The position numbers and the translations under genes are program-made. DNA of 36,219 bases from Candidatus Auribacterota bacterium (lineage in GTDB: Bacteria > Auribacterota > Tritonobacteria > UBA1439), in assembly GCA_026392035.1 (NCBI GenBank), contig JAPLCX010000117.1:1-36219 (forward strand). The letters are read 5' to 3'. Of the stretch, positions 2,985 through 36,219 are shown piece by piece; position 1 is the stretch's first letter; each line of letters starts with the position of its first letter. The notes under the pieces were generated by a model. The model had not been told where the DNA came from, did not search any database, and saw nothing but the letters and a program-made list of their open reading frames with translations.

Positions 2985-3012
2985 TTGAACTTATCTCGTC
3001 GCAGAATATAAT
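2985..3012 (+). promoter_or_regulatory. Candidate sigma70-type promoter
   Basis: TTGAAC at 2985-2990 and a perfect TATAAT at 3007-3012 are separated by 16 bp. They lie about 30 bp upstream of the ATG at 3043 in the spacer between divergent genes, so they most likely drive the ATP-grasp ligase gene. Confidence 0.55.
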
Positions 3013-3042
3013 AGACCTGTAAGCGGCCTGAGGGGTTGAGCG

Positions 3043-13076: not shown

Positions 13077-13348
13077 AAGCTCGCCGTTCCTCCATCCTGG
13101 ACAATCTTATACACCTTGTCGTGAGGCCGCACCATCTCTGCAACCCTGATACCAATGGAATCGCCTGCCTTGGCCTCGGTGATGCCCTGGTGCTCAACCT
13201 GCATTGATTCAATATTCTCCTGGCAGTCCGTGGTGTGGCCGACAATCCGGATGCGATCACCGACGCTGAGCGGGCCGCTCAGCTCAATGGCCGCAACCTG
13301 GATATGACCGAAATAGTGCGTGACCCTTCCAATCTCGATCTCTGGCAT
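13073..13348 (-). CDS. Standalone EF-Tu domain-II-like protein
   Basis: This 91-aa protein starts at ATG 13348 with a strong AGGAGGTGAG ribosome binding site. Its sequence (IGRVTHYFGHIQVAAIEL, LSVGDRIRIVGHT, ESMQVEHQGITEAKAGD, IGIRVAEMVRPHDKVYKI) matches the beta-barrel domain II of translational GTPases, without any GTPase domain. Such free-standing proteins are annotated as translation elongation factor-like. They could bind aminoacyl-tRNA ends or act as a general scaffold; the role is unknown. It is first of a three-gene operon divergent from the PflX-like radical SAM gene, with about 278 bp between starts. Confidence 0.78.
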   Translation of the reverse strand: MPEIEIGRVTHYFGHIQVAAIELSGPLSVGDRIRIVGHTTDCQENIESMQVEHQGITEAKAGDSIGIRVAEMVRPHDKVYKIVQDGGTASL

Positions 13349-23937: not shown

Positions 23938-24006
23938 ATGACAGAAGAAAATCCTCCATCAGAGCGAAATATCGTTGTCCGACCCGGCCGCATAGGTTTG
24001 AAATGA
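23938..24006 (+). CDS. Possible 22-codon leader ORF coupled to cas3
   Basis: ATG 23938 opens MTEENPPSERNIVVRPGR and ends at TGA 24004-24006, overlapping the cas3 ATG by ATGA. The first codons and the 60 bp before them match 20940-21035, where the frame reads MTEHSPVEKDIVVRP, so it derives from the 5' end of a repeated gene, possibly an ORF6N gene. cas3 has no ribosome binding site of its own, so translational coupling is possible. It has no clear SD itself. Confidence 0.35.
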   Translation: MTEENPPSERNIVVRPGRIGLK

Positions 24007-26681
24007 TAGAATATTTTTGGGCGAAGACGGGAGAAGATGGAAATGCATACCATCCCTTAATACTGCACATGCTTGATGTCGCTGCCTGCGCTGATGTTAT
24101 AATGGAGCGGGAGCCGGAAACTACCCGTCAACGTATGGCGGCAATCATGGGACTTCCATGGGAATATGCTCGTCTGTGGCTTCTATTACTTATTGCCAGT
24201 CACGATTTGGGTAAGGCATGTCCTGGTTTTCAGCTTAAATGGGTGAATTCAAGGAGGGTGCTTGAAAAGGCAGGATTTCGGCTTCCGCGATTACCCGACA
24301 CCTCTATAAACCATGCCTTTGTCAGTCAGGCAGCCCTTGATCATTTGTTGTGCGAAATGGGGTGGAAGGAGGGTATTGCCGCTCTTTGTGCCGATGCGGT
24401 TGGATGTCATCACGGCATCCGCGCTACACCATCGGTACTTGAGGGACTTTCCGGCAATCGAAATGGTGTTGATGAGCAGCATTGGAAGTCATCATGGGAG
24501 GAACTTTTCAAAACTCTTCAAAATATCTTTGTAGTAGGCAAGCCTCCTGTAAAGAGCAACCTTTCCGGTCCTGATTTTATGCTTCTTTCCGGCCTTGCCA
24601 GTTTCGCCGACTGGATCGGTTCCAACAAAGAGTGGTTCCCGTTTGGTACTATAGCGGATTGTGGCGATCTCGACATATGGTTTCAGCGACGGCGAGAAAA
24701 GGCTAAAATAGCTCTTGATGCCATTGGCTGGAACAATCGGAGGCCACTTCTTAATGTGTATCAGACCTTTGCCGATGCATTCCCGAAATGTTCGCCTCCA
24801 CGCCCGCTACAAAAAACGGTGGCAATGGCGGTTGCTGCAACACCGTCGCCTTGCGTACTTCTCGTTGAAGCCCCGATGGGCGAAGGGAAAACCGAAGCGG
24901 CATTCTATGCGCATTTGGAACTGCAACGGCGCTTCGGCCATCGGGGAATGTATATGGCTTTGCCTACAAAGGCAACGGGCAATGCGATGTTCACCCGTAC
25001 ACTTACCTTTCTTCGCTCCTTTGCGGGTAGTCGGACTCTAGACTTACAGTTGCTCCATGGAGCAGCCAAACTCAACGACACATTTCAGAAGGTTTGTCTG
25101 GGGCAGATACATGATGACGAAGATGGAGGAACTGTACGAGCGGGAGAGTGGTTCACCCACAAGAAACGGGCACTTCTGTCAGAATACGGAGTTGGGACCA
25201 TCGACCAAGCATTGCTTACCATATTGCCGGTGCGGCACTATTTTGTACGGCTTTGGGGGCTTGCCAATCGGATAGTTATCTTCGATGAAATACACGCCTA
25301 TGATGCCTATACGGGGACACTTCTGTTCCATCTCATACGCTGGCTGCGTGCCCTCGGTTCCAGCGTGGTGCTGCTTTCCGCTACTCTCCCACCTGAATTT
25401 CGGCGGCGATTGGCAGCTGCGTTGGGTGCAAAACTTCCGGAGCAAGAAGCTGCCTATCCTCGATTGACGATATTTACTGACGGTGATTGTAAACAGGTAA
25501 AATTCGCTGCCGACCGTAGCAGATGGCGCGAGCTGGTGATTGAACCACTTGGAGCGGCTCTGCCGGCAATTCATTCCTGTCTGATTGAAAAACTGCCTGC
25601 TTGCGGGTTTGTTGGTGTTATTGTTAATACGGTACAGCGCGCACAGGAGCTATATAAACTCTTCGGTGATGGCGAAATGATAGTAACAGAGGGCGTCATT
25701 ATCGGCAAACGGCTTACTGATAGAACCGAGATTTACCTTTTCCATGCTCGTTATCCGGCGCAGGAGCGGCAGAAACGGGAGGATGCTGCGCGTGCCCTAT
25801 TTGGCAAAAATGAAGACCAGAATGGTAAAATCAAAGACCGAAATGGACGGTCTATTCTCATCGCCACACAGGTTGTCGAACAAAGCCTCGACCTCGACTT
25901 TGATTTGCTCATCACCGACCTTGCGCCAATAGACCTTATCTTGCAGCGAGCAGGGCGGCTCTGGCGGCACCAACGGAAGAATCGGCATGTCCCTCATCCG
26001 GTTCTCTGTGTTGCCGGACTTATCGGAAATTTGCCCGGTTCCTTTGGTGATCCGCTCTGGTGGAGTGCAATTTACCGGGAGGACATTTTACTACGCACCT
26101 GGGAAGTCCTCAAAAAGCATAAGCAAATTGTTCTTCCTGATGAAATAGACCGGCTTGTTGAAGATGTCTATGAAGGGGTTGCCATGCCCACTGATGAGGA
26201 AGTTCTGAAGCGGCTTGAAAAAGCCGAGGTTGAAAGCGATGGGGAATATTACGCACACCAGACTATGGCGCATCAGGCAATTATCGGACTGCCCGATGAT
26301 GGCAGCTGGAAAGATACGAGCCGGTTCTATCTCTATGATGAGGATGAACCAGGTGTGCATCGCATTTTAAAAGCCCAGACCCGTCTCGGTGAGGATTCGC
26401 TGACGGTAATCCCGTTCTTTCCCTTAGATAATCTTGATGCTACTGTCACACCTGACTTTGCAATGGCAAAAGAATGGTTTATGCGTGCGGTTTCACTTGC
26501 GCGCAAAGATGTTGTGATGCGGTTGCGGAGCAAGGGTATTCCCGATGGATGGAAGAAAATCTCTCTGCTGCGAAACTGCTACCCGATGTTTTTTGATAAC
26601 GCCGGGAATTGGATTGAAGACGATAATGTGAAATTAGACAAAGAACTTGGAATAGTTTACACACACAAGGAAGCGCAATGA
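24003..26681 (+). CDS. cas3: Cas3 nuclease-helicase, type I-E
   Basis: This 892-aa protein is the effector that Cascade recruits to unwind and degrade target DNA. The N-terminal HD nuclease shows HPLILHMLDVAA (H17) and ASHDLGKACPGF (H67-D68). The superfamily-2 helicase has Walker A EAPMGEGKTEAA (~289-300), FDEIHAYD (~426, a DExH box), a SATLPPEFRRR motif, and TQVVEQSLDLDFDLLITDLA with LQRAGRLWRH near 647. All core motifs are intact. Its stop overlaps the cse1 start by ATGA, and it heads an eight-gene operon. Base composition is AT-richer than the left half of the window, which suggests transfer. Confidence 0.96.
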   Translation: MIEYFWAKTGEDGNAYHPLILHMLDVAACADVIMEREPETTRQRMAAIMGLPWEYARLWLLLLIASHDLGKACPGFQLKWVNSRRVLEKAGFRLPRLPDTSINHAFVSQAALDHLLCEMGWKEGIAALCADAVGCHHGIRATPSVLEGLSGNRNGVDEQHWKSSWEELFKTLQNIFVVGKPPVKSNLSGPDFMLLSGLASFADWIGSNKEWFPFGTIADCGDLDIWFQRRREKAKIALDAIGWNNRRPLLNVYQTFADAFPKCSPPRPLQKTVAMAVAATPSPCVLLVEAPMGEGKTEAAFYAHLELQRRFGHRGMYMALPTKATGNAMFTRTLTFLRSFAGSRTLDLQLLHGAAKLNDTFQKVCLGQIHDDEDGGTVRAGEWFTHKKRALLSEYGVGTIDQALLTILPVRHYFVRLWGLANRIVIFDEIHAYDAYTGTLLFHLIRWLRALGSSVVLLSATLPPEFRRRLAAALGAKLPEQEAAYPRLTIFTDGDCKQVKFAADRSRWRELVIEPLGAALPAIHSCLIEKLPACGFVGVIVNTVQRAQELYKLFGDGEMIVTEGVIIGKRLTDRTEIYLFHARYPAQERQKREDAARALFGKNEDQNGKIKDRNGRSILIATQVVEQSLDLDFDLLITDLAPIDLILQRAGRLWRHQRKNRHVPHPVLCVAGLIGNLPGSFGDPLWWSAIYREDILLRTWEVLKKHKQIVLPDEIDRLVEDVYEGVAMPTDEEVLKRLEKAEVESDGEYYAHQTMAHQAIIGLPDDGSWKDTSRFYLYDEDEPGVHRILKAQTRLGEDSLTVIPFFPLDNLDATVTPDFAMAKEWFMRAVSLARKDVVMRLRSKGIPDGWKKISLLRNCYPMFFDNAGNWIEDDNVKLDKELGIVYTHKEAQ

Positions 26682-28210
26682 GTCGATACAATTTAATCGA
26701 TGAACCGTGGATCCCCGTGCTTGATTTAAAAGGGAATCGGAAGCCACTTGGTATTCGCGATACACTGATTAATGCAGATAGTCTTGCTTGTATCGAAGAC
26801 CCGTCTCCACTGGTCACTGCAGCACTCCATCGCTTTTTACTTGCAGTGCTGTATCGCGCACTGCAAGGGCCTTGTGATATTGATGAGGCGAAGAAACTTT
26901 TCCGTGAGGGATTACCAAAGAAGAAGATCCGAGCGTATCTGGAGAAGTGGAAGGAGCGGTTTTATCTGTTTGATAAGCATTATCCGTTTGGACAGAATCG
27001 GAATGTTCCAGAAGATGAAGTTGAGCCATGGACAAAATTAACCGCGGAGTTTAACTCGACAAGCAGCAAAGTGCTATTTGATCATACGGATACAACCAAT
27101 TTGTTTTCGGCGCCATATGATTCTATCGCGCGGTGGATAGTTTCAACGATGAACTTTTCTGTTCGTGGAGGTAGAGGTTATAATCCCTCCCCATCTTCTG
27201 ACGGTTTAATTGTCTTACCTATCGGGAGCACATTGTTTGAAACATTACTTTTTTGTCTAACACCTTATTCAAATAGGGATGTTGCTAATTCCGATTCTGC
27301 ACCGTGGGAAAGAAAATCTCATCCTCTCAGTTTTTTTAAGGGAAAGCCTGAAAGGGCGTCACTTGGTTATGCAGATCGTTATACTTGGCAATCCCGAGCA
27401 ATAAGGCTTCTCATGGAGCCCAATGGCGGAGTCAAAAAGGTCGCATTTATTCCCGGTGTTCGTCACATTGAAAATAGCGATACAGAATCGATGGTGCCGT
27501 TGAAGTTGGTTAAAGATAAAGGACTACGTTTTGTTCAACTTGAAGAGAAAGGGATATGGCGGGATTTTGACTCATTATTGCCCAACGGTACGGGAAGGGC
27601 ACCAAAAGTAATAGATAATATGCTTATACTTTGCGGTCGGAATCGCGCTAGTCTTGCAAAGTCAATTCAAGTTATCGGTCAAAGTTTCAGCAATGCAAAA
27701 ATCGAATTCTGGCGCATGGAAAAGTTCGCTCTCTCTGGACAGATGGTAGCAAACGCGGAATTCTGTAACGATATTCGTATGTTGTTAATAATTGCCGAGA
27801 CTACCTCGGAAATACTCAATAATGCCTGCAAGGAAATGGGTAAAAATATAATAGCGCATGGTGAAAGAATATTGGAACCTGACAAATGGAAAGCGGGGAA
27901 ACTGTTCCCCGGTGATGTGATGAAATATGTAAACAGTATTGGTGCAGTCCCTCAGTACTGGTCAACTCTCGAAGCAAAATTTCATGAAGTGCTTCGCGGC
28001 TATACGCTTGATAAGAATCCGGATGATATTCACCATGACTGGCTCGTTGCAGTGCGTAACGCTCTATCCGACGCCTGGAAATTGCATCAACGTTCTATCG
28101 CGGGCAATGACGCCTGGGGAATACGCGCGCTGGTGAAAGCTGAAAGTATCATTGGAAAAAAGATAGCAGAACTTAATACAAACATCCAATCACTCAAGGA
28201 GGTGCCATGA
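26678..28210 (+). CDS. cse1: Cascade large subunit Cse1 (CasA/Cas8e)
   Basis: This 510-aa protein begins RYNLIDEPWIPVLDLKG, the diagnostic N-terminus of Cse1. In type I-E systems this subunit recognises the PAM, helps open the target duplex and recruits Cas3. Length is typical (about 500). The middle segment GGRGYNPSPSSDGLIVLP fits the loop region of the family. It overlaps cas3 by 4 bp upstream and cse2 by 4 bp downstream, so the three are translationally coupled. Confidence 0.95.
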   Translation: MSRYNLIDEPWIPVLDLKGNRKPLGIRDTLINADSLACIEDPSPLVTAALHRFLLAVLYRALQGPCDIDEAKKLFREGLPKKKIRAYLEKWKERFYLFDKHYPFGQNRNVPEDEVEPWTKLTAEFNSTSSKVLFDHTDTTNLFSAPYDSIARWIVSTMNFSVRGGRGYNPSPSSDGLIVLPIGSTLFETLLFCLTPYSNRDVANSDSAPWERKSHPLSFFKGKPERASLGYADRYTWQSRAIRLLMEPNGGVKKVAFIPGVRHIENSDTESMVPLKLVKDKGLRFVQLEEKGIWRDFDSLLPNGTGRAPKVIDNMLILCGRNRASLAKSIQVIGQSFSNAKIEFWRMEKFALSGQMVANAEFCNDIRMLLIIAETTSEILNNACKEMGKNIIAHGERILEPDKWKAGKLFPGDVMKYVNSIGAVPQYWSTLEAKFHEVLRGYTLDKNPDDIHHDWLVAVRNALSDAWKLHQRSIAGNDAWGIRALVKAESIIGKKIAELNTNIQSLKEVP

Positions 28211-28674
28211 GCACAATTATTGAGTCATTGGAGGATATGGCGAAAAAGGAGTCAAAAGTACGGGCTGTGCTCAAACGCAGCCTTTCTTTCGACCCAGGCA
28301 CCTATCCTCCTGCTTTTCCCTATGTTGAACCGCGACTATCCAGCGATGACAACAATTGGAAACGGATAGTCTATTACCTTGTCGCCGGATTGTGGGCTCG
28401 GCACTGGCGGGGATCTAATGGGCTAGGTCAATATCTTCCCGATGCCTGCAGAACGCTCTATGTCAAGAATGACAAATCGGCGAGCATCGAAAAACGTTTT
28501 ATTACCCTGCTCGATGCTGATGATGGTCAGCTTGCATATCGTTTGCGGCAGATGCTTGCCCTGCTTAAAGATTATCCGATTGACTTCGATGGCCTGCTGA
28601 AGGATTTGTTTTCGTGGAATCATCCGGACAAATTCGTTCAGATTCGCTGGGCAAGAGGCTTTTATGGAACTTGA
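28207..28674 (+). CDS. cse2: Cascade small subunit Cse2 (CasB)
   Basis: This 155-aa helical protein occupies the position of the Cascade small subunit, two copies of which line the belly of the complex and stabilise the displaced strand. Family-like segments are YVEPRLSSDDNNWKRIVYYL, VAGLWARHWRG and KRFITLLDADDGQLAYRLRQ. It starts within the cse1 stop (ATGA). A 50-bp gap with AAAGGAGA follows before cas7e. Confidence 0.92.
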   Translation: MSTIIESLEDMAKKESKVRAVLKRSLSFDPGTYPPAFPYVEPRLSSDDNNWKRIVYYLVAGLWARHWRGSNGLGQYLPDACRTLYVKNDKSASIEKRFITLLDADDGQLAYRLRQMLALLKDYPIDFDGLLKDLFSWNHPDKFVQIRWARGFYGT

Positions 28675-28724
28675 TCCACAATAGACAATGAACCTGAAAC
28701 TATCAAAACAAAGGAGAATCACAA

Positions 28725-29873
28725 ATGAAAACCTTGATTGAAATCCATGTTCTGCAGAACTTTGCCCCGAGCAACCTCAACCGTGATGATACCGGAGCTC
28801 CCAAAGATGCTTTCTTTGGAGGGCGTCGTCGTGCGCGCATCTCAAGCCAGTGTATTAAGCGTGCAGTGCGGGAGTATTTCAAGAGACAGAATGGCAATTG
28901 GTTTGCTAGCCGCACTAAACGCCTTGTTGATGATCTCAAAACAAAACTTGAGAAGAAGCTTGCCAGCACGAAAGGATATTCAGATGAGAACTTGATCAAG
29001 GCTATTGAAGCAGCCATCAATTGCATTGGCATAGGCGATAAAAAGGTCAAAGTTGAGAAGGATAAAAAGACAGGTCAAATGAAAACGGACGTCCTTCTGT
29101 TTCTGAGCACCAAAGAAATTGATGCTCTTGCTTCTGTTGTAGAGAAGTCATATAAAGAGCTGCTTAAAGACAAGATTCCTTCTGAGGTTTCAGACAAAGT
29201 AGCGGATTCGCTTGCAGGGAAGGAGAATAAGTCCCGGCTGACATTGGATATAGCACTCTTTGGAAGAATGCTGGCGGTGATGCCCGAGAAGAATCAGAAC
29301 GCCGCTTGCCAAGTTGCTCACGCCATATCGACCCATGCTGTGGAACGGGAATTTGACTTTTATACTGCCGTGGATGATCTTAAGCCTGAAGACATTGCAG
29401 GTGCAGATATGATGGGTACTGTTGAGTTCAATTCCGCCTGCTTCTACCGTTATGCCGTGGTTGACTACAAGAAATTGGTCGATAACCTGCCAAACGATAA
29501 CGAACTTGCTCTCACGGGGCTCCGCGCTTTCCTTGAAGGTTTTGTGGTTGCCGAGCCCGCGGGCAAACAGAATACCTTTGCTGCTCATAACCCGCCGGAG
29601 TTTGTTCTTGTATCGGTGAGGAAGGATGGATTCCCTCGCAATCTCGCTAATGCTTTCGAAGTACCTGTCCGGGTGAAGGGTGAAGAGTCATTGACGCGCA
29701 AATCTGTAAAAATGCTTGCAGATAAGGCAAAGGAGCTTTCTTCGGTCTACGGTGATGAGGGAAAGTCCTTTTGCATTGATCTCATTGATTCTGGTGCAGA
29801 AATTGGCACAAAAAAATCATCGCTTCAAGAACTTCTGAATGAAGTTATTGCCGAAGTCAGACGGGAGGGATAA
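28725..29873 (+). CDS. cas7e: Cascade backbone subunit Cas7e (Cse4/CasC)
   Basis: This 382-aa RAMP protein forms the six-copy backbone that holds the crRNA spacer. The start EIHVLQNFAPSNLNRDDTGA and GGRRRARISSQCIKRAVR are strongly diagnostic of type I-E Cas7. Further on are DIALFGRMLA, AISTHAVEREFDFYTAVDD and GTVEFNSACFYRYAVVDY. An internal insertion rich in K and D (about residues 60-115) makes it slightly longer than the E. coli protein. AAAGGAGA precedes the ATG. Confidence 0.95.
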   Translation: MKTLIEIHVLQNFAPSNLNRDDTGAPKDAFFGGRRRARISSQCIKRAVREYFKRQNGNWFASRTKRLVDDLKTKLEKKLASTKGYSDENLIKAIEAAINCIGIGDKKVKVEKDKKTGQMKTDVLLFLSTKEIDALASVVEKSYKELLKDKIPSEVSDKVADSLAGKENKSRLTLDIALFGRMLAVMPEKNQNAACQVAHAISTHAVEREFDFYTAVDDLKPEDIAGADMMGTVEFNSACFYRYAVVDYKKLVDNLPNDNELALTGLRAFLEGFVVAEPAGKQNTFAAHNPPEFVLVSVRKDGFPRNLANAFEVPVRVKGEESLTRKSVKMLADKAKELSSVYGDEGKSFCIDLIDSGAEIGTKKSSLQELLNEVIAEVRREG

Positions 29874-29875
29874 CG

Positions 29876-30559
29876 ATGTCTACTTTACTTTTGCGTCTGA
29901 TGGGACCCATGCAATCATGGGGAACGACCAGTCGATTTGATCAGCGCGATACCGGTAAGGAGCCGAGCAAGTCGGGCGTCATTGGTCTGCTCGCTGCTGC
30001 AATGGGCATAGACCGGGCCGATTGGGAAAAGCTGGAGCCATTGATCCAACTGAAGATGGGGGTGCGTCATGATCGCCCTGGGGTTTTACGAAAGGATTAT
30101 CAGACCGCCGGTTGTTCCGATTCGGATACAATAATCAAGGCTGACGGCTCTCCATCGAAAGATGGGGTGGTGTCTGAAAGGTACTATCTCGCCGATGCTG
30201 CTTTTCTTGTTGGCTTGGAGGGCGATGATCGTAAGATTCTTGAACAGGCGCACAACAAACTTCGCAATCCTCAGTGGGTTTTGGGGCTGGGGCGAAAATC
30301 GTATCTGCCCGCTGAGCCAGTTTACCTGAAGGACGGCCTGTGCGATGTGTCGTTAAAGGAAGCTCTTTTTTCTTATCCGTGGCTTGGACGAGGAACTGCA
30401 CCGCAAACGATTCTTTACTCTTTTGAATCGCCTGATGGCTCCGGCCGCATGGTAATGGATCAATCCTTGTCGTCGTTTGCCGAACGCCGCTTCGGTTCAC
30501 GTTTTGTTGTTTCTGAATGGCTACCTATTACAACGGAGGTTGCCTATGTACCTGCATAG
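29876..30559 (+). CDS. cas5e: Cascade subunit Cas5e (CasD)
   Basis: This 227-aa protein caps the 5' handle of the crRNA. Its opening LLLRLMGPMQSWGTTSRFDQ and KEPSKSGVIGLLAAAMGI are typical of Cas5e, as is the following LKMGVRHDRPGVLRKDYQT. It begins 2 bp after cas7e and its 3' end overlaps the start of cas6e by 14 bp. Confidence 0.94.
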   Translation: MSTLLLRLMGPMQSWGTTSRFDQRDTGKEPSKSGVIGLLAAAMGIDRADWEKLEPLIQLKMGVRHDRPGVLRKDYQTAGCSDSDTIIKADGSPSKDGVVSERYYLADAAFLVGLEGDDRKILEQAHNKLRNPQWVLGLGRKSYLPAEPVYLKDGLCDVSLKEALFSYPWLGRGTAPQTILYSFESPDGSGRMVMDQSLSSFAERRFGSRFVVSEWLPITTEVAYVPA

Positions 30560-31178
30560 AATCCATCTTGATTTGCGATGCACGGATGCTCGGCGAGATG
30601 TGGCTGATCCCTATGAAATGCACTCTACGCTCTGCCGGGCTTTTTCGACACCGGAAGCGAAGTGCGCCCCAGGTGCCTTTCTCTGGCGGCTTGAACCGGA
30701 ATTAAGCTCTGATGGTATGCCAAAGATAATTGTTCAGAGTCGGAAGATCCCGGAATGGTCGAGAATCAATCTGCCTGAATGGTTTGGAGAGCAGCCGAGC
30801 CCGCCTCTTGATCTTGCGCAAAAGCTTGCATTTAATGACATAAAAAACGGGAGCCAATTCCGGTATCGGGTGCGCGCTAATCCATCAGTTCGACGTAATG
30901 GGAAACGGATAGGTCTCTTCGATGCAACAACACAGATTGCCTGGTTCCAACAGCAAGGTAAAAAGAACGGATTCAAGCCATTAAGTATCCATCGAAGTGA
31001 GGAAAGGATGCTTACTGGCAAAATTCGTAGTGGTAATCCAATTCGGGTGTTTTCGGTACTATATGATGGTATTTTGGAGGTCACAAATACGCAACTATTC
31101 AACAAAGTTGTTAGTAGCGGTATCGGTCATGCAAAGGCCATGGGGCTGGGACTTCTGTCAGTGATACCGATAAAATAA
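30546..31178 (+). CDS. cas6e: crRNA endonuclease Cas6e (Cse3/CasE)
   Basis: This 210-aa enzyme cuts the pre-crRNA within each repeat hairpin and stays bound to the 3' stem. The ATG at 30546 follows GGAGG and lies inside the end of cas5e. Residues Y23 and H26 in DPYEMHS coincide with the catalytic tyrosine and histidine described for the T. thermophilus homologue. The C-terminal glycine-rich loop IGHAKAMGLGLLSV is typical. The target would be the CCCCAC/GTGGGG stem of the array repeats. Confidence 0.94.
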   Translation: MYLHRIHLDLRCTDARRDVADPYEMHSTLCRAFSTPEAKCAPGAFLWRLEPELSSDGMPKIIVQSRKIPEWSRINLPEWFGEQPSPPLDLAQKLAFNDIKNGSQFRYRVRANPSVRRNGKRIGLFDATTQIAWFQQQGKKNGFKPLSIHRSEERMLTGKIRSGNPIRVFSVLYDGILEVTNTQLFNKVVSSGIGHAKAMGLGLLSVIPIK

Positions 31179-31255
31179 GTTTCACTCTGTAAAGGCGTTC
31201 GGAAATTCATCATAGCCGATGTTTCCGGAGCGTTGTCGTTTTCGTGGTCTTGTTA

Positions 31256-31284
31256 TTGACAAAAGAGATAGAAAAACCTAAGGT
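31256..31284 (+). promoter_or_regulatory. Weak candidate promoter for cas1-cas2
   Basis: TTGACA at 31256-31261 followed 17 bp later by TAAGGT (31279-31284) lies in the 147-bp gap between cas6e and cas1, the largest gap in the cas cluster. The -35 box is perfect but the -10 box is poor, so separate transcription of the adaptation genes is only a possibility. Confidence 0.3.
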
Positions 31285-31325
31285 TTATTGGAAGAACAAG
31301 CGGGAATAATGAGACAGAGAAGGAA

Positions 31326-32580
<1,255 letters not shown>

Positions 32581-32662
32581 TTTGGTTAAGCTATTTAAAG
32601 GCTACGGAACAGATTTAAAGCTAAAAAGTGATTTTAGAGGTATCTAAGGCAGGATTTAAAGT
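32581..32662 (+). promoter_or_regulatory. CRISPR leader
   Basis: This 82-bp AT-rich stretch lies between the cas2 stop and the first repeat, the expected leader position for type I-E. ATTTAAAG occurs three times, with TTTAAAG at 32594-32600, 32614-32620 and 32655-32661 (spacings 20 and 41 bp, about two and four helical turns). The degenerate last repeat at the far end supports this orientation. Confidence 0.8.
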
Positions 32663-34160
32663 GTGTTCCCCACACGCGTGGGGATGAACCGGGCAGCGGA
32701 GGATTCAGAGCGTCCCCTTTAATGTGTTCCCCACACGCGTGGGGATGAACCGGGTGTGTGTAGTAGGATCCGGAGAGGCAAACAGTGTTCCCCACACGCG
32801 TGGGGATGAACCGTATCTCAGCTATGAACTCCCCGGATAGATTGAGTGTTCCCCACACGCGTGGGGATGAACCGTTATCGCTCATGACATAACCCGTATC
32901 AATAGGGTGTTCCCCACACGCGTGGGGATGAACCGGCGCGGTATTGTGGGCGGCGTGGCGATGAGTAGTGTTCCCCACACGCGTGGGGATGAACCGGAGA
33001 GATTTTCTAACGGTTGCGCCGAGTGGGAGTGTTCCCCACACGCGTGGGGATGAACCGATGGCGGGAATGGGAAATGGTTTATTCAGAGCGTGTTCCCCAC
33101 ACGCGTGGGGATGAACCGCGCTGAAGTACAGTTTTGGCTGGGACACCCTGGTGTTCCCCACACGCGTGGGGATGAACCGATATACGCCCAGTGGCAGAAT
33201 GCATGCGCCGAGTGTTCCCCACACGCGTGGGGATGAACCGTATTCGATGCGTTCCAGCACATTGCTCGACCAGTGTTCCCCACACGCGTGGGGATGAACC
33301 GATCAAACTAACACCGGAGACGTGGACACCAGAGTGTTCCCCACACGCGTGGGGATGAACCGATGAGTTTATCCTGAGGAACCCAGAGAATTGCGTGTTC
33401 CCCACACGCGTGGGGATGAACCGTAGCGCAGGGGGATCCCGAGGTCTGAGACGTAGTGTTCCCCACACGCGTGGGGATGAACCGGTGGGGACACGCCCCG
33501 ACCGCACAATGGAGTGGTGTTCCCCACACGCGTGGGGATGAACCGAATAACGAAATACGCGGTGCGTATCGAGGGATGTGTTCCCCACACGCGTGGGGAT
33601 GAACCGTTACACCCAAAGATAAATATCCTTTAAAACAGGTGTTCCCCACACGCGTGGGGATGAACCGGAGGTATGTCATGGGCAGACCGAGGAATGAGAG
33701 TGTTCCCCACACGCGTGGGGATGAACCGCGGATCATCTTCGGCTCGTTGGTGTAGTTGCGGTGTTCCCCACACGCGTGGGGATGAACCGTTTATCGAGTG
33801 AGATTTAAAGGTTGCTGAGCCGTGTTCCCCACACGCGTGGGGATGAACCGGTGAATTTTACGGGCCGTTGGTAAAATGGAGAGTGTTCCCCACACGCGTG
33901 GGGATGAACCGTATCCCACGTCGGAGTAGCAGTCGGTGTCGGAGTGTTCCCCACACGCGTGGGGATGAACCGATCACCAGGTCGGGCAGGTACGGGACGA
34001 TACTGTGTTCCCCACACGCGTGGGGATGAACCGTATCTGTTCTACCTCTTTAGTATTGATTGGTAGTGTTCCCCACACGCGTGGGGATGAACCGGCGATC
34101 ATATGGGTGAGCGACAGGGATATGACGTGTTCCCCACACGCGTGGGGAGGGGATGAACCG
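32663..34160 (+). CRISPR. Type I-E CRISPR array, 25 repeats and 24 spacers
   Basis: Twenty-five repeats begin at 32663 and every 61 bp up to 34127. The 29-bp repeat starts GTGTTCCCC and ends GTGGGGATGAACCG, with a CCCCAC/GTGGGG stem around the loop ACGC, the classic type I-E form. By eye the first 24 repeats are identical. All 24 spacers are exactly 32 bp. The last repeat (34127-34160) carries an extra GGGGA, giving 34 bp. The long set of intact repeats beside intact cas1-cas2 suggests recent activity. Confidence 0.98.
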
Positions 34161-34177
34161 GTATAAAGGAGGACCGC

Positions 34178-34408
34178 ATGGCGCGCATAGTCATAGCGAC
34201 TCTGCTGACGAGCATGGTCATCCTATGTCTCGTCTGGTGGCCGTCGATGCAAATGGATAAGCCGACAGACAAGAATCGGCACGAGCCGGAAGCATCAGCG
34301 TGGTCAGAAATCCGCGAGACGACCACATGGCTCATAGGCACGGTTAACGGTGTGATGCTTATAGCCGCGGCTTTCAAGAGGCGGCGCGACAGGAGAAGGA
34401 AGAGATGA
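34178..34408 (+). CDS. Phage-like two-TM small protein (holin-like)
   Basis: This 76-aa gene lies just after the last array repeat. It has a strong AAAGGAGG 5 nt before ATG 34178. The product has a hydrophobic N-terminus (IVIATLLTSMVILCLVWW), a polar middle, a second hydrophobic stretch (TWLIGTVNGVMLIAAAF) and a strongly basic end (KRRRDRRRKR). That layout resembles small phage holin-like membrane proteins, but no family is certain. It overlaps the following lipoprotein ORF by ATGA. Confidence 0.5.
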   Translation: MARIVIATLLTSMVILCLVWWPSMQMDKPTDKNRHEPEASAWSEIRETTTWLIGTVNGVMLIAAAFKRRRDRRRKR

Positions 34409-34518
34409 AGATGGCGATGGCTGTCATCGCAGTGCAGCTCGTAGCCGGCTGCGTGGCTGTCCCGAAAGGCAACAAGGGAATGTTTCCCACACGCGTGGGT
34501 GTCACATTGCGCAACTAG
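34405..34518 (+). CDS. Short lipoprotein ORF fused to a CRISPR-repeat remnant
   Basis: This 37-aa ORF (too short for routine gene calling) begins MKMAMAVIAVQLVAGCVAV, a lipoprotein signal with lipobox VAGC and predicted lipidation at C16. It is coupled by ATGA to the preceding two-TM gene, an arrangement seen for phage lysis or spanin lipoproteins. From about residue 26 the sequence (FPTRVGV) is encoded by the partial CRISPR repeat at 34480-34499 and its shared 3' flank. The native gene is therefore probably truncated and the current C-terminus accidental. Confidence 0.5.
   Translation: MKMAMAVIAVQLVAGCVAVPKGNKGMFPTRVGVTLRN
34480..34499 (+). CRISPR. Orphan partial type I-E repeat
   Basis: Twenty bases match the first part of the array repeat (starting with A instead of G, one C-to-T change), then switch to TGTCACATTGCG. 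The same junction occurs at 35528-35547. It lies 319 bp after the last array repeat and is not in register with the 61-bp period. Confidence 0.85.
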
Positions 34519-34556
34519 GCACATAAAGGAATAACCTCGATGTAAAAAGACACAAG
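34480..34556. repeat. 77-bp repeat (partial CRISPR repeat + Bro-N 5' region), copy 1
   Basis: It matches 35528-35604 with one mismatch (34485), and 34486-34556 is identical. It contains the partial CRISPR repeat, AAAGGA, and ATG immediately followed by TAA. Confidence 0.9.
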
Positions 34557-34743
34557 AATCGCGATATTTAGAGGAAGGGAAATAAGAAATACGCTGTACC
34601 GGAATGAATGGTGGTTTTCAGTTATTGATGTTTGCGGTGTTCTCACGGAAAGTTTTGATCCCGGTGCGTATTGGAGAAAACTTAAGCAGAGGTTGGCAGA
34701 TGAAGGAAGCGAGGAAAAATCAGGGCCAGACCTCTACTATTGA
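34540..34743 (+). pseudogene. Bro-N/DinD-like gene fragment 1
   Basis: After AAAGGA and ATG 34540 the second codon is TAA. The frame then continues open: KDTRIAIFRGREIR, YRNEWWFSVIDVCGVLTES and DPGAYWRKLKQRLADEGSEE, the N-terminal Bro-N domain found in phage antirepressors and DinD-like proteins. It ends after 66 codons in a REP-like repeat (GGGCCAGACCTCTACTAT at 34723-34740). The premature stop and truncation mark it as a pseudogene, unless the stop is bypassed. Confidence 0.75.
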
Positions 34744-34990
34744 CTAAGAATTCTTTTGTAGCATCCCCGTGCGTACATGTGCAATTCTAGCGCATGGGCA
34801 AGCAGGTGGCAAGATAGGAATCCTGCGGTAAAATTTCAAATGCGCGCGCGCCGAAATGCTTTGAAAGGATTATTTAGGTCCGAGCCTGAAGGCTCGGCTA
34901 CAGTTCAATTTGTTCTCCGAAGGCACTGAGCTTGCCGAAGTGTCAGGAATATACGATGTCATTTGAATTTTGTCATTTGTCATTCATTAG
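34744..34990. other. Noncoding spacer with a hairpin
   Basis: No gene is seen. CCGAGCC TGAA GGCTCGG at 34880-34897 forms a 7-bp hairpin. The 25-bp repeat shared with 2102-2126 occurs at 34957-34981. Confidence 0.5.
34957..34981. repeat. 25-bp dispersed repeat, copy 2
   Basis: Identical to 2102-2126. It lies just beyond the stop codon of the maf remnant. Confidence 0.75.
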
Positions 34991-35302
34991 TTATATCTCT
35001 ATCCCCGTGCGCTTGAGCAGCCGTGCCAGAGTGGCAAGTGGCAACCCCACGACGTTGTAGAAGCACCCCTCGATGCGTTCGATGAATATGGCTCCCATCC
35101 CCTGGATATCGAAGCTCCCTGCCTTGTCCAGCGGGGATACCCGCTTGAAGTAGTTCGTAATCTGCGCGTCGGTCGGGGGGCGCATGTACACCTTCGTCTT
35201 CTCGCATGCGCGATACGTCTTCCCTCTGTTCACATCAATGACCGCGAGCCCCGTATAGACCCACTGGGGTTTGCGCGAGAGCAGCCTGAGCGTCCTGCGC
35301 GA
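34991..35302 (-). pseudogene. maf: 5'-truncated Maf-like nucleotide pyrophosphatase gene
   Basis: The frame ends at TAA 34991 and reads back through VYTGLAVIDVNRGKT, KVYMRPPTDAQI, SPLDKAGSFDIQGMGAIFIE and NVVGLPLATLARLL, the C-terminal half of Maf/YhdE house-cleaning pyrophosphatases. About 100 codons remain; family proteins have about 190. The N-terminal half, with the SxSPRR start motif, is missing: the frame meets TAA just upstream and then a REP-like repeat and a partial CRISPR repeat. The strand change and flanking direct repeats suggest insertion or rearrangement of a chromosomal fragment. Confidence 0.85.
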
Positions 35303-35315
35303 TTAGAAAACATTC

Positions 35316-35333
35316 GGGTCAGACCTTTACTAT
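35316..35333 (+). repeat. REP-like direct repeat bordering the maf fragment, copy 2
   Basis: GGGTCAGACCTTTACTAT matches 34723-34740 with two C/T differences in 18 bp. The two copies flank the maf remnant in the same orientation. Confidence 0.75.
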
Positions 35334-35339
35334 ACACTA

Positions 35340-35354
35340 CGTGGGGATGAACCG
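35340..35354 (+). CRISPR. Orphan 3' part of a type I-E repeat
   Basis: CGTGGGGATGAACCG equals the last 15 bases of the array repeat. The nine bases that follow equal the start of the array spacer at 33546-33577, making a 24-bp exact match to 33531-33554. The next 112 bp before the complete repeat at 35467 are GC-rich and of unknown origin. Confidence 0.85.
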
Positions 35355-35466
35355 AATAACGAAGGGGCAAGGCCGAAGAGCAATAAGCGTGACAGGCCGG
35401 GGCTCGGGCAGGGGATGAGCGGAGCTGGGCCGCCGCGAAGTGGCGGACCGGCGGGAGCAAGACATG

Positions 35467-35547
35467 ATGTTCCCCACACGCGTGGGGATGAACCGTCGTC
35501 CTTGAACGCGATGACCTTTGCAGCAACATGTTCCCCACACGCGTGGG
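35467..35547 (+). CRISPR. Remnant mini-array: one repeat, one spacer, one partial repeat
   Basis: A full 29-bp repeat (35467-35495, first base A instead of G) is followed by a 32-bp spacer (35496-35527) and a partial repeat (35528-35547) that keeps the 61-bp period before diverging. It is a leftover of an array in the same orientation as the main one, about 1.3 kb past its end. Confidence 0.92.
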
Positions 35548-35604
35548 TGTCACATTGCGCAACTAGGCACATAAAGGAATAACCTCGATGTAAAAAGACA
35601 CAAG
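35528..35604. repeat. 77-bp repeat (partial CRISPR repeat + Bro-N 5' region), copy 2
   Basis: This is the second copy of the block at 34480-34556 (offset 1048). Downstream the two Bro-N bodies are only moderately similar, so identity is concentrated in this noncoding block. Confidence 0.9.
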
Positions 35605-35987
35605 GGTCGCGATATTCAAAGGCAGGAAAATCAGGAGCGTTACACCAAAACGAATGGTGGTTCGTGATCAATGATGTTATTGAATCGTTGACTGATTCCA
35701 ATGATCCCGCGCAATACTTCAAACGGCTAAAACAGAGGGATGAGGAACTTGCGGATCTTATCGACAAAGGGGGGGTACAATTTGTACCACCCCTTATGCT
35801 TGAGGTGGAAACTACAGGCGGCAAACAAAAAATGTTTTGTTGGAATACGGAGGGCATATTTCGACTTATTCAGTCAATCCCATCACCTAAAGCCGAGCCA
35901 TTCAAACGCTGGTTGGCCAGGGTGGGGTATGAAGTCGCTCCCCGCGCGGGAGCGTGGATTGAAACCCCATGTAGGGATGCGGCGTAA
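35588..35987 (+). pseudogene. Bro-N/DinD-like gene fragment 2
   Basis: ATG 35588 is again followed at once by TAA. The frame KDTRVAIFKGRKIR shifts near 35637-35641 and continues as LHQNEWWFVINDVIESLTDS, QYFKRLKQRDEELADL and NTEGIFRLIQSIPSPKAEPF before RWLARVGYE. This matches Bro-N/DinD-type phage or damage-induced proteins. Homology ends exactly where a type I-C-style CRISPR repeat begins (35934). The rest of the frame (VAPRAGAWIET) is a translation of that repeat. Nonsense codon, frameshift and truncation make it a pseudogene. Confidence 0.8.
35934..35965 (+). CRISPR. Solitary type I-C-like CRISPR repeat
   Basis: A 32-nt unit starting GTCGCTCCCC and ending GGATTGAAAC has the length, the CGCTCCC/GGGAGCG stem and the ATTGAAAC end of type I-C repeats. 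No second copy occurs in the remaining 254 bp and no type I-C cas gene is in the window. It is unrelated in sequence to the type I-E repeats. Confidence 0.85.
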
Positions 35988-35994
35988 CTGTCGT

Positions 35995-36181
35995 GGGGAC
36001 ATTTTAGGAAAGTGCTGGCTGTTAATTACTATAGTGTTGCACATGAGTGGATGCGAATTTTTTGACGTCTGAGCGATCATAAAAAATTCCTTCGCAACTG
36101 GGGCACTTCGCAACTGGGGCAACCGGGGCATGTCCAGCCAAAATAGAAATGTCCCCTTCTTACCAAATTAGAAATGTCCCC
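35995..36181. mobile_element. 187-bp element with GGGGACATTT ends (IS/MITE remnant)
   Basis: GGGGACATTT at 35995-36004 is the inverted complement of AAATGTCCCC at 36172-36181. A second copy of the right end (CCAAAATAGAAATGTCCCC, 36138-36156) precedes the last one (36163-36181). A 16-bp tandem duplication CTTCGCAACTGGGGCA lies at 36090-36121. No transposase is present. Confidence 0.45.
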
Positions 36182-36192
36182 ATGACTGTTCC

Positions 36193-36219
36193 CTCTCCCC
36201 CCAATGTCTGGGGGGAGAG
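36193..36219. repeat. 11-bp-stem hairpin at the window end
   Basis: CTCTCCCCCCA and TGGGGGGAGAG form a perfect stem around ATGTC, similar in composition to the hairpin at 20865-20888. The window ends here, so it may extend. Confidence 0.55.

What the first reader, a model, noticed from the sequence alone, without database searches (positions are those of the whole stretch)
35934..35965. Lone type I-C repeat inside a phage Bro-N gene in a type I-E host
A well-formed 32-nt type I-C-style repeat begins exactly where Bro-N homology ends. There is no array and no type I-C cas gene here. Phage-borne solitary repeats that act as RNA anti-CRISPRs (Racr) are established. A lone repeat next to antirepressor-like phage DNA fits that pattern, but it could equally be the last relic of a lost I-C array.
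Basis: partly seen in the sequence, partly recalled or inferred. Interest (0 to 1): 0.7.

Follow-up and report, generated by a model that had tools for sequence, protein, structure and literature searches.

The report
Relic of a lost CRISPR locus
A single type I-C CRISPR repeat fused to a broken Bro-N gene is most likely the stump of a decayed bacterial CRISPR immune locus rather than a phage anti-CRISPR RNA; the surprise is that this Bro-N gene family turns up repeatedly inside CRISPR gene clusters, and that such clusters break exactly at a repeat's first base.

Summary
A perfect, lone 32-nt type I-C repeat lies at 35934-35965 (+), directly on the last codon of Bro-N homology (...RWLARVGYE|GTCGCTCC...). 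No I-C array is visible, and the genome has neither Csd1 nor a Cas7c above cut-off. A second lone I-C repeat, with a compensatory stem change, sits on another contig.

The Racr (phage RNA anti-CRISPR) reading is not supported. The Bro-N piece is a frameshifted, 3'-truncated member of PADLOC candidate-defence family PDC-S13. Full-length relatives sit inside bacterial cas operons: type I-C between cas7 and cas4 or cas4 and cas1, and type I-E between cas6 and cas1. They lie on the array's strand, and one I-C case is in the window's own phylum. Eight viral Bro-N relatives carry no repeat. No promoter-like site lies upstream.

A deltaproteobacterial genome gives two parallel relics: the same Bro-N family cut at the same codon by a type I-E repeat, and cas1e cut exactly at a type I-E repeat beside an intact Bro-N.

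Best explanation (0.8): a decayed I-C locus in which a deletion joined Bro-N to the first base of a repeat, and the array collapsed to one unit. Recurrent breakpoints at a repeat's first base are the mildly novel element. Interest 0.35.

The parts
35934..35965 (+). lone perfect type I-C CRISPR repeat
   Evidence: the identical repeat forms arrays in most of 54 bacterial contig stretches
35597..35933 (+). Bro-N (PDC-S13 family) pseudogene piece: 5' part in another frame, 3' two thirds missing, ends at the repeat's first base
35528..35590 (+). degenerate terminal type I-E repeat and trailer directly before the Bro-N piece (also at 34480-34540)
   Evidence: (families D1, D2)
34540..34720 (+). second, diverged Bro-N fragment behind the same type I-E trailer
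24003..34160 (+). resident type I-E locus: cas3, cas8e, cse2, cas7, cas5, cas6, cas1, cas2 and array
   Evidence: ORFs; repeats; these proteins match I-E cas genes of G137
36131..36219 (+). repeated element at the contig end (at least 5 other near-identical copies in the genome)

Best explanation
This is the stump of an eroded type I-C CRISPR-Cas locus. SHOWN: full-length relatives of this Bro-N gene (PDC-S13) sit inside or next to I-C and I-E cas operons, on the array's strand, with cas4-cas1 or cas1-cas2 between Bro-N and the array. In the window, Bro-N is cut at codon ~109 and joined directly to the first base of one intact I-C repeat, on the same strand. INFERRED: a deletion removed the 3' part of Bro-N, the adaptation genes, the leader and the spacers, with its right end at the leader-repeat (or spacer-repeat) boundary. 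Recombination between repeats can collapse an array to one unit. The stump now lies behind the resident I-E array, in a region broken up by element remnants. It has no present immune or anti-immune function. Why the breakpoint falls on the repeat's first base is not shown; that is where Cas1-Cas2 nicks during spacer integration.
For: Bro-N within I-C operons: L050, L060, L056 and G020 of the window's own phylum; near an I-C operon in G129 and inside a complete I-E operon in G137. In G122 and G124 it is the genome's only Bro-N. L050, L060 and G129 use exactly the window's repeat. Parallel relics in G117: cas1e cut at ...GAACCCGGAAC|GTGTTCCCCGC beside an intact Bro-N, and Bro-N cut at ...KVGY by an I-E repeat with an identical lone I-C repeat 450 nt on. 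G117 and the window genome lack Csd1. The Bro-N piece is frameshifted. A same-family genome has three I-C repeats at a contig end.
Against: No I-C cas gene fragment remains near the repeat; left of Bro-N is an I-E array tail, not cas7c. The repeat is perfect although its neighbour gene has decayed. The genome's other lone I-C repeat differs by a compensatory pair, so the two may have different sources. The right flank cannot be read beyond 254 bp because the contig ends. Only three junctions of this type were seen.
Confidence: 0.8

Rival explanations
1. A Racr: a phage- or prophage-borne solitary repeat expressed as a decoy RNA that titrates type I-C Cas proteins.
For: Solitary I-C repeats are common in viral contigs: about 30 distinct sites here, two with the exact window sequence. 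A type I-C Racr has been tested (PMC10651486).
Against: No phage gene family is found beside the repeat. The Bro-N piece is a bacterial candidate-defence pseudogene. 25 of 30 viral solitary repeats have no long open frame running into them; the window repeat has 118 codons. No promoter-like site on the + strand. The host has no I-C system to inhibit. Eight viral Bro-N relatives carry no repeat.
Confidence: 0.06
2. Recombination between a self-derived spacer and the Bro-N gene: an array that had acquired a spacer from Bro-N recombined with the gene, leaving Bro-N joined to the repeat that followed the spacer.
For: It explains junctions exactly at a repeat's first base and a cut in the most conserved Bro-N stretch in two lineages.
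Against: The I-C motif TTC lies 30 nt before the window repeat, whereas 964 I-C spacers from the fetched loci are almost all 32-37 nt. None of those spacers matches Bro-N.
Confidence: 0.06
3. Assembly chimera: the metagenome assembler joined a Bro-N contig to a CRISPR repeat shared with another organism.
For: The genome is a fragmented assembly of 122 contigs, and the repeat lies 254 bp from a contig end.
Against: The 254 bp after the repeat end in an element found at several other places in the same genome. Independent genomes show the same kind of junction.
Confidence: 0.08

Closest known systems
Type I-C CRISPR repeat or array (Desulfobulbaceae, Syntrophaceae, Nitrospirae and others)
   Same: Identical 32-nt repeat sequence and stem; the C119 variant equals the first repeat of the L056 Desulfobulbaceae array.
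   Different: One unit only, with no leader, spacer or I-C cas gene.
Racr / solitary repeat unit (Camara-Wilpert et al. 2023, PMC10651486)
   Same: A lone full repeat without array neighbours.
   Different: Inside a bacterial pseudogene rather than intergenic on a mobile element; no promoter; no matching host system.
PDC-S13 (PADLOC candidate defence family; Bro-N / DinD-like)
   Same: The Bro-N piece matches at E=2.5e-28; full-length relatives in cas operons or beside arrays at 1e-95 to 1e-121.
   Different: Here frameshifted and cut at about residue 109 of 275.
G117 decayed CRISPR loci (Deltaproteobacteria bacterium RBG_16_49_23, contigs C27 and C109)
   Same: Bro-N or the adjacent cas1e cut at or within 1-3 nt of a CRISPR repeat's first base; one carries the identical lone I-C repeat.
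   Different: The cuts are made by type I-E repeats, and an intact Bro-N is kept at C27.

Membership tests
Racr / SRU | solitary full-length repeat, no second repeat within 100 bp | tested here: met
Racr / SRU | outside predicted genes (SRUFinder masks ORFs, PMC10651486) | tested here: not met
   It lies within an open frame running through Bro-N into the repeat; Bro-N is a pseudogene, so a gene caller might or might not mask it.
Racr / SRU | carried by a virus, provirus or plasmid | tested here: not met
   The neighbours are a chromosomal I-E locus and a decayed region. The only phage-like piece (34160-34480) matches no Pfam or PHROGs family.
Racr / SRU | host has a CRISPR-Cas system of the same subtype (83% of the SRUs matched the host's subtype, PMC10651486) | tested here: not met
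   No Csd1, no I-C Cas7; type I-E only
Racr / SRU | promoter within 250 bp upstream (the paper's criterion for picking candidates to test) | tested here: not met
   No + strand promoter-like site in 35300-36219; simple sigma-70 consensus only
Racr / SRU | RNA expressed and inhibits Cas | not testable with these tools
   needs RNA data and an assay
Type I-C CRISPR-Cas locus (relic) | repeat identical to that of bona fide I-C arrays next to I-C cas genes | tested here: met
Type I-C CRISPR-Cas locus (relic) | neighbouring gene occurs in I-C operons, same strand and order | tested here: met
Type I-C CRISPR-Cas locus (relic) | recognisable I-C cas gene remnant at the site | tested here: not met
   tblastn of Cas1, Cas4, Cas7 and Cas8 of I-C finds nothing in the window
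PDC-S13 | profile match of the Bro-N piece | tested here: met
   E=2.5e-28, residues 30-113 of 286

The most novel reading that the evidence does not exclude
CRISPR-Cas loci may decay by a specific route: Cas1-Cas2 cutting at the leader-repeat boundary starts deletions that run back into the adaptation genes (or the Bro-N/PDC-S13 gene upstream of them) and leave a gene stump fused to the first base of a repeat. The linked Bro-N/PDC-S13 gene would then be a regular accessory of I-C and I-E operons rather than a bystander.
Probability: 0.2. Interest if true: 0.6.

Novelty: new member of a known kind. Interest (0 to 1): 0.35.

Why it matters
It removes a tempting but unsupported anti-CRISPR call: a lone repeat can be the last trace of a CRISPR locus, and its context (intragenic, in a pseudogene, no matching host system) helps to tell the two apart. 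It also ties a candidate defence gene (Bro-N/PDC-S13) to cas operons of two subtypes. Finally it offers a testable idea about how CRISPR loci die, through deletions ending at a repeat's first base, where the integrase nicks.

Tried and rejected
Viral scan for a Bro-N/repeat junction: one hit (L039), a YqaJ-type gene (identified by eye) without a repeat. tblastn of the Bro-N/repeat fusion against phages and plasmids: matches stop at the end of Bro-N, none continues into the repeat. Self-spacer origin: motif spacing and spacer search negative. Assembly hub between phage and array (viral repeats preceded by TTC at spacer length): only a weak peak (4 of 44 at 34 nt), not pursued. Shared flanks between the two lone repeats in the genome: none. 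Literature on Bro-N in cas operons: none found apart from ICP1, where a Bro-N/KilAC gene lies next to gp88, which replaces the phage CRISPR-Cas system, and in one isolate is found beside the CRISPR-Cas system (PMC8263062). The name PDC-S13 is in no held paper.

Full report
OBSERVATION. The 32-nt sequence at 35934-35965 (+) is a perfect type I-C repeat; no shuffle of the window gives a match even with 3 mismatches, and it folds as the usual 7-bp stem. It is alone in the window and lies 254 bp from the contig end. The last 89 bases of the contig are a repeated element with several near-identical copies elsewhere in the genome, which explains the contig break and shows that the right flank belongs to this genome. 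The genome holds one more I-C repeat, also alone, at C119:2987-3018 (-). It differs by a compensatory stem pair (G-C to A-T) and equals the first repeat of a Desulfobulbaceae I-C array. No Csd1 is found in this genome or in its five same-family relatives. The only Cas7-like match is below cut-off and is the resident I-E Cas7. A same-family genome has three I-C repeats at a contig end.

THE BRO-N PIECE. Bro-N homology ends on the codon before the repeat (...EPFKRWLARVGYE|GTCGCTCC), at residue 109 of a 275-residue relative, and the N-terminal part lies in another frame. It is therefore a pseudogene cut at its 3' side. Its best family is PADLOC PDC-S13, a candidate defence gene (window piece E=2.5e-28; full-length relatives 1e-95 to 1e-121). 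The best PHROGs match has unknown function; anti-repressor families match weakly. A second, diverged Bro-N fragment lies at 34540-34720. Both follow the same degenerate terminal type I-E repeat and trailer.

WHERE BRO-N AND I-C REPEATS MEET ELSEWHERE. I fetched bacterial contigs with the exact repeat, or the C119 variant, and asked which encode this Bro-N. Full-length genes sit inside I-C operons in a Syntrophaceae bacterium (cas8-cas7-BroN-cas4-cas1-array), a Deltaproteobacterium (cas7-BroN-cas4-cas1-array) and a Desulfobulbaceae bacterium (cas4-BroN-cas1-array), always on the array's strand. In two of these genomes it is the only Bro-N gene. A degenerate copy sits between cas7 and cas4 of an I-C operon in G020, a genome of the window's own phylum. 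Searching by Bro-N alone, without reference to repeats, gave 11 further loci: one inside an I-C operon (G020), one between cas6 and cas1 of a complete I-E operon (G137), one 1.7 kb upstream of I-C cas3-cas8 (G129). Three of 11 is far above a rough 0.7% expectation (P about 5e-5; 1e-3 at an expectation of 2%). These expectations are my estimate of the share of a genome near cas operons, so the P values are rough.

PARALLEL RELICS. Deltaproteobacterium RBG_16_49_23 (G117) lacks Csd1 and shows the same decay twice. At C27, Bro-N is intact and followed by the first ~57 residues of cas1e, cut exactly at an I-E repeat: ATGCTGGAACCCGGAAC|GTGTTCCCCGCACACGCGGGGATGAATC against intact ATGCTGGAACCCGGCACGCGAGTT in G137. 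The G137 operon shows what was there: BroN-cas1-cas2-leader-array. At C109, Bro-N is cut at ...RWLAKVGY by a degenerate I-E repeat, and an I-C repeat identical to the window's stands alone about 450 nt on. In the window the cut is at ...RWLARVGYE by the I-C repeat. In all three the stump and the repeat are on the same strand, as an internal deletion of gene-to-array would leave them.

HOW IT MOST LIKELY AROSE. Shown: order, strand and junctions as above. Inferred: a deletion took the 3' part of Bro-N, the adaptation genes and the leader, and repeat-to-repeat recombination removed the spacers. Junctions on the first base of a repeat (two exact, one within 1-3 nt) are few but notable: a random endpoint would usually leave part of a spacer. 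The first base of the first repeat is where Cas1-Cas2 nicks during integration (established knowledge), so an aborted integration event is a possible cause, not shown here. An origin by recombination with a self-derived spacer is less likely, because the TTC motif is 30 nt from the repeat, outside the 32-37 nt seen in nearly all of 964 spacers, and no spacer matched Bro-N.

WHY NOT A RACR. Solitary I-C repeats are indeed common in viral contigs, and a type I-C Racr has been tested (PMC10651486). But 25 of 30 distinct viral sites have fewer than 80 open codons running into them, against 118 here. There is no + strand promoter-like site, no phage family nearby, no I-C target in the host, and none of eight viral Bro-N relatives carries a repeat. 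Phage and plasmid records with similar Bro-N stop matching before the repeat.

NOVELTY. A CRISPR relic is a known kind of thing. I found no paper on this Bro-N family in bacterial cas operons; the library is partial. The recurrent position of Bro-N and the exact cuts at repeat starts are the parts worth following.

LIMITS. Metagenome-assembled contigs, no reads, no RNA data, the contig ends 254 bp past the repeat, and there are only three junctions of this type, found after the fact. Cas gene calls in related loci rest on tblastn with one or two reference operons, plus Pfam for L050.

Noticed in passing
34160-34480: A 320-bp stretch with a 76-codon membrane-protein-like frame and the start of another sits exactly between two type I-E repeats, like a giant spacer; it matches no Pfam or PHROGs family.
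   Followed up: partly
L004 (G000:C119) 2987-3018: A second lone I-C repeat, with a compensatory stem change, about 100 bp upstream of a DUF6263 gene and next to a truncated N-6 DNA methylase; origin unexplained.
   Followed up: partly
L050, L056, L060, L170, L192: Bro-N/PDC-S13 genes inside I-C and I-E cas operons; other passenger genes (RhuM-like, four-helix-bundle type, identified by eye) sit at the same gene boundaries.
   Followed up: partly
L098 and L099 (IMGVR_UViG_3300031673_000079): One 50-kb viral contig carries at least three separate solitary I-C repeats, two behind a shared upstream sequence (GGTGATATCTTCA.TATCTGCG): good multi-copy Racr candidates.
   Followed up: no
L040 (IMGVR_UViG_3300036766_001779) 13103-13134: A viral contig with the exact window repeat, in which a phage frame (Spo11/TopoVI-like by eye) runs into the repeat much as Bro-N does here.
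   Followed up: no
L078 3352-3383 (Synergistota L-13 complete chromosome), L062, L069: Lone copies of the exact I-C repeat in genomes without Csd1; in L062 and L069 they lie just upstream of a gene start.
   Followed up: partly
34990-35310: 3' end of a maf-like gene (identified by eye) cut off beside an element end; together with similar motifs at 34720 and 35310 this marks a heavily rearranged region.
   Followed up: no
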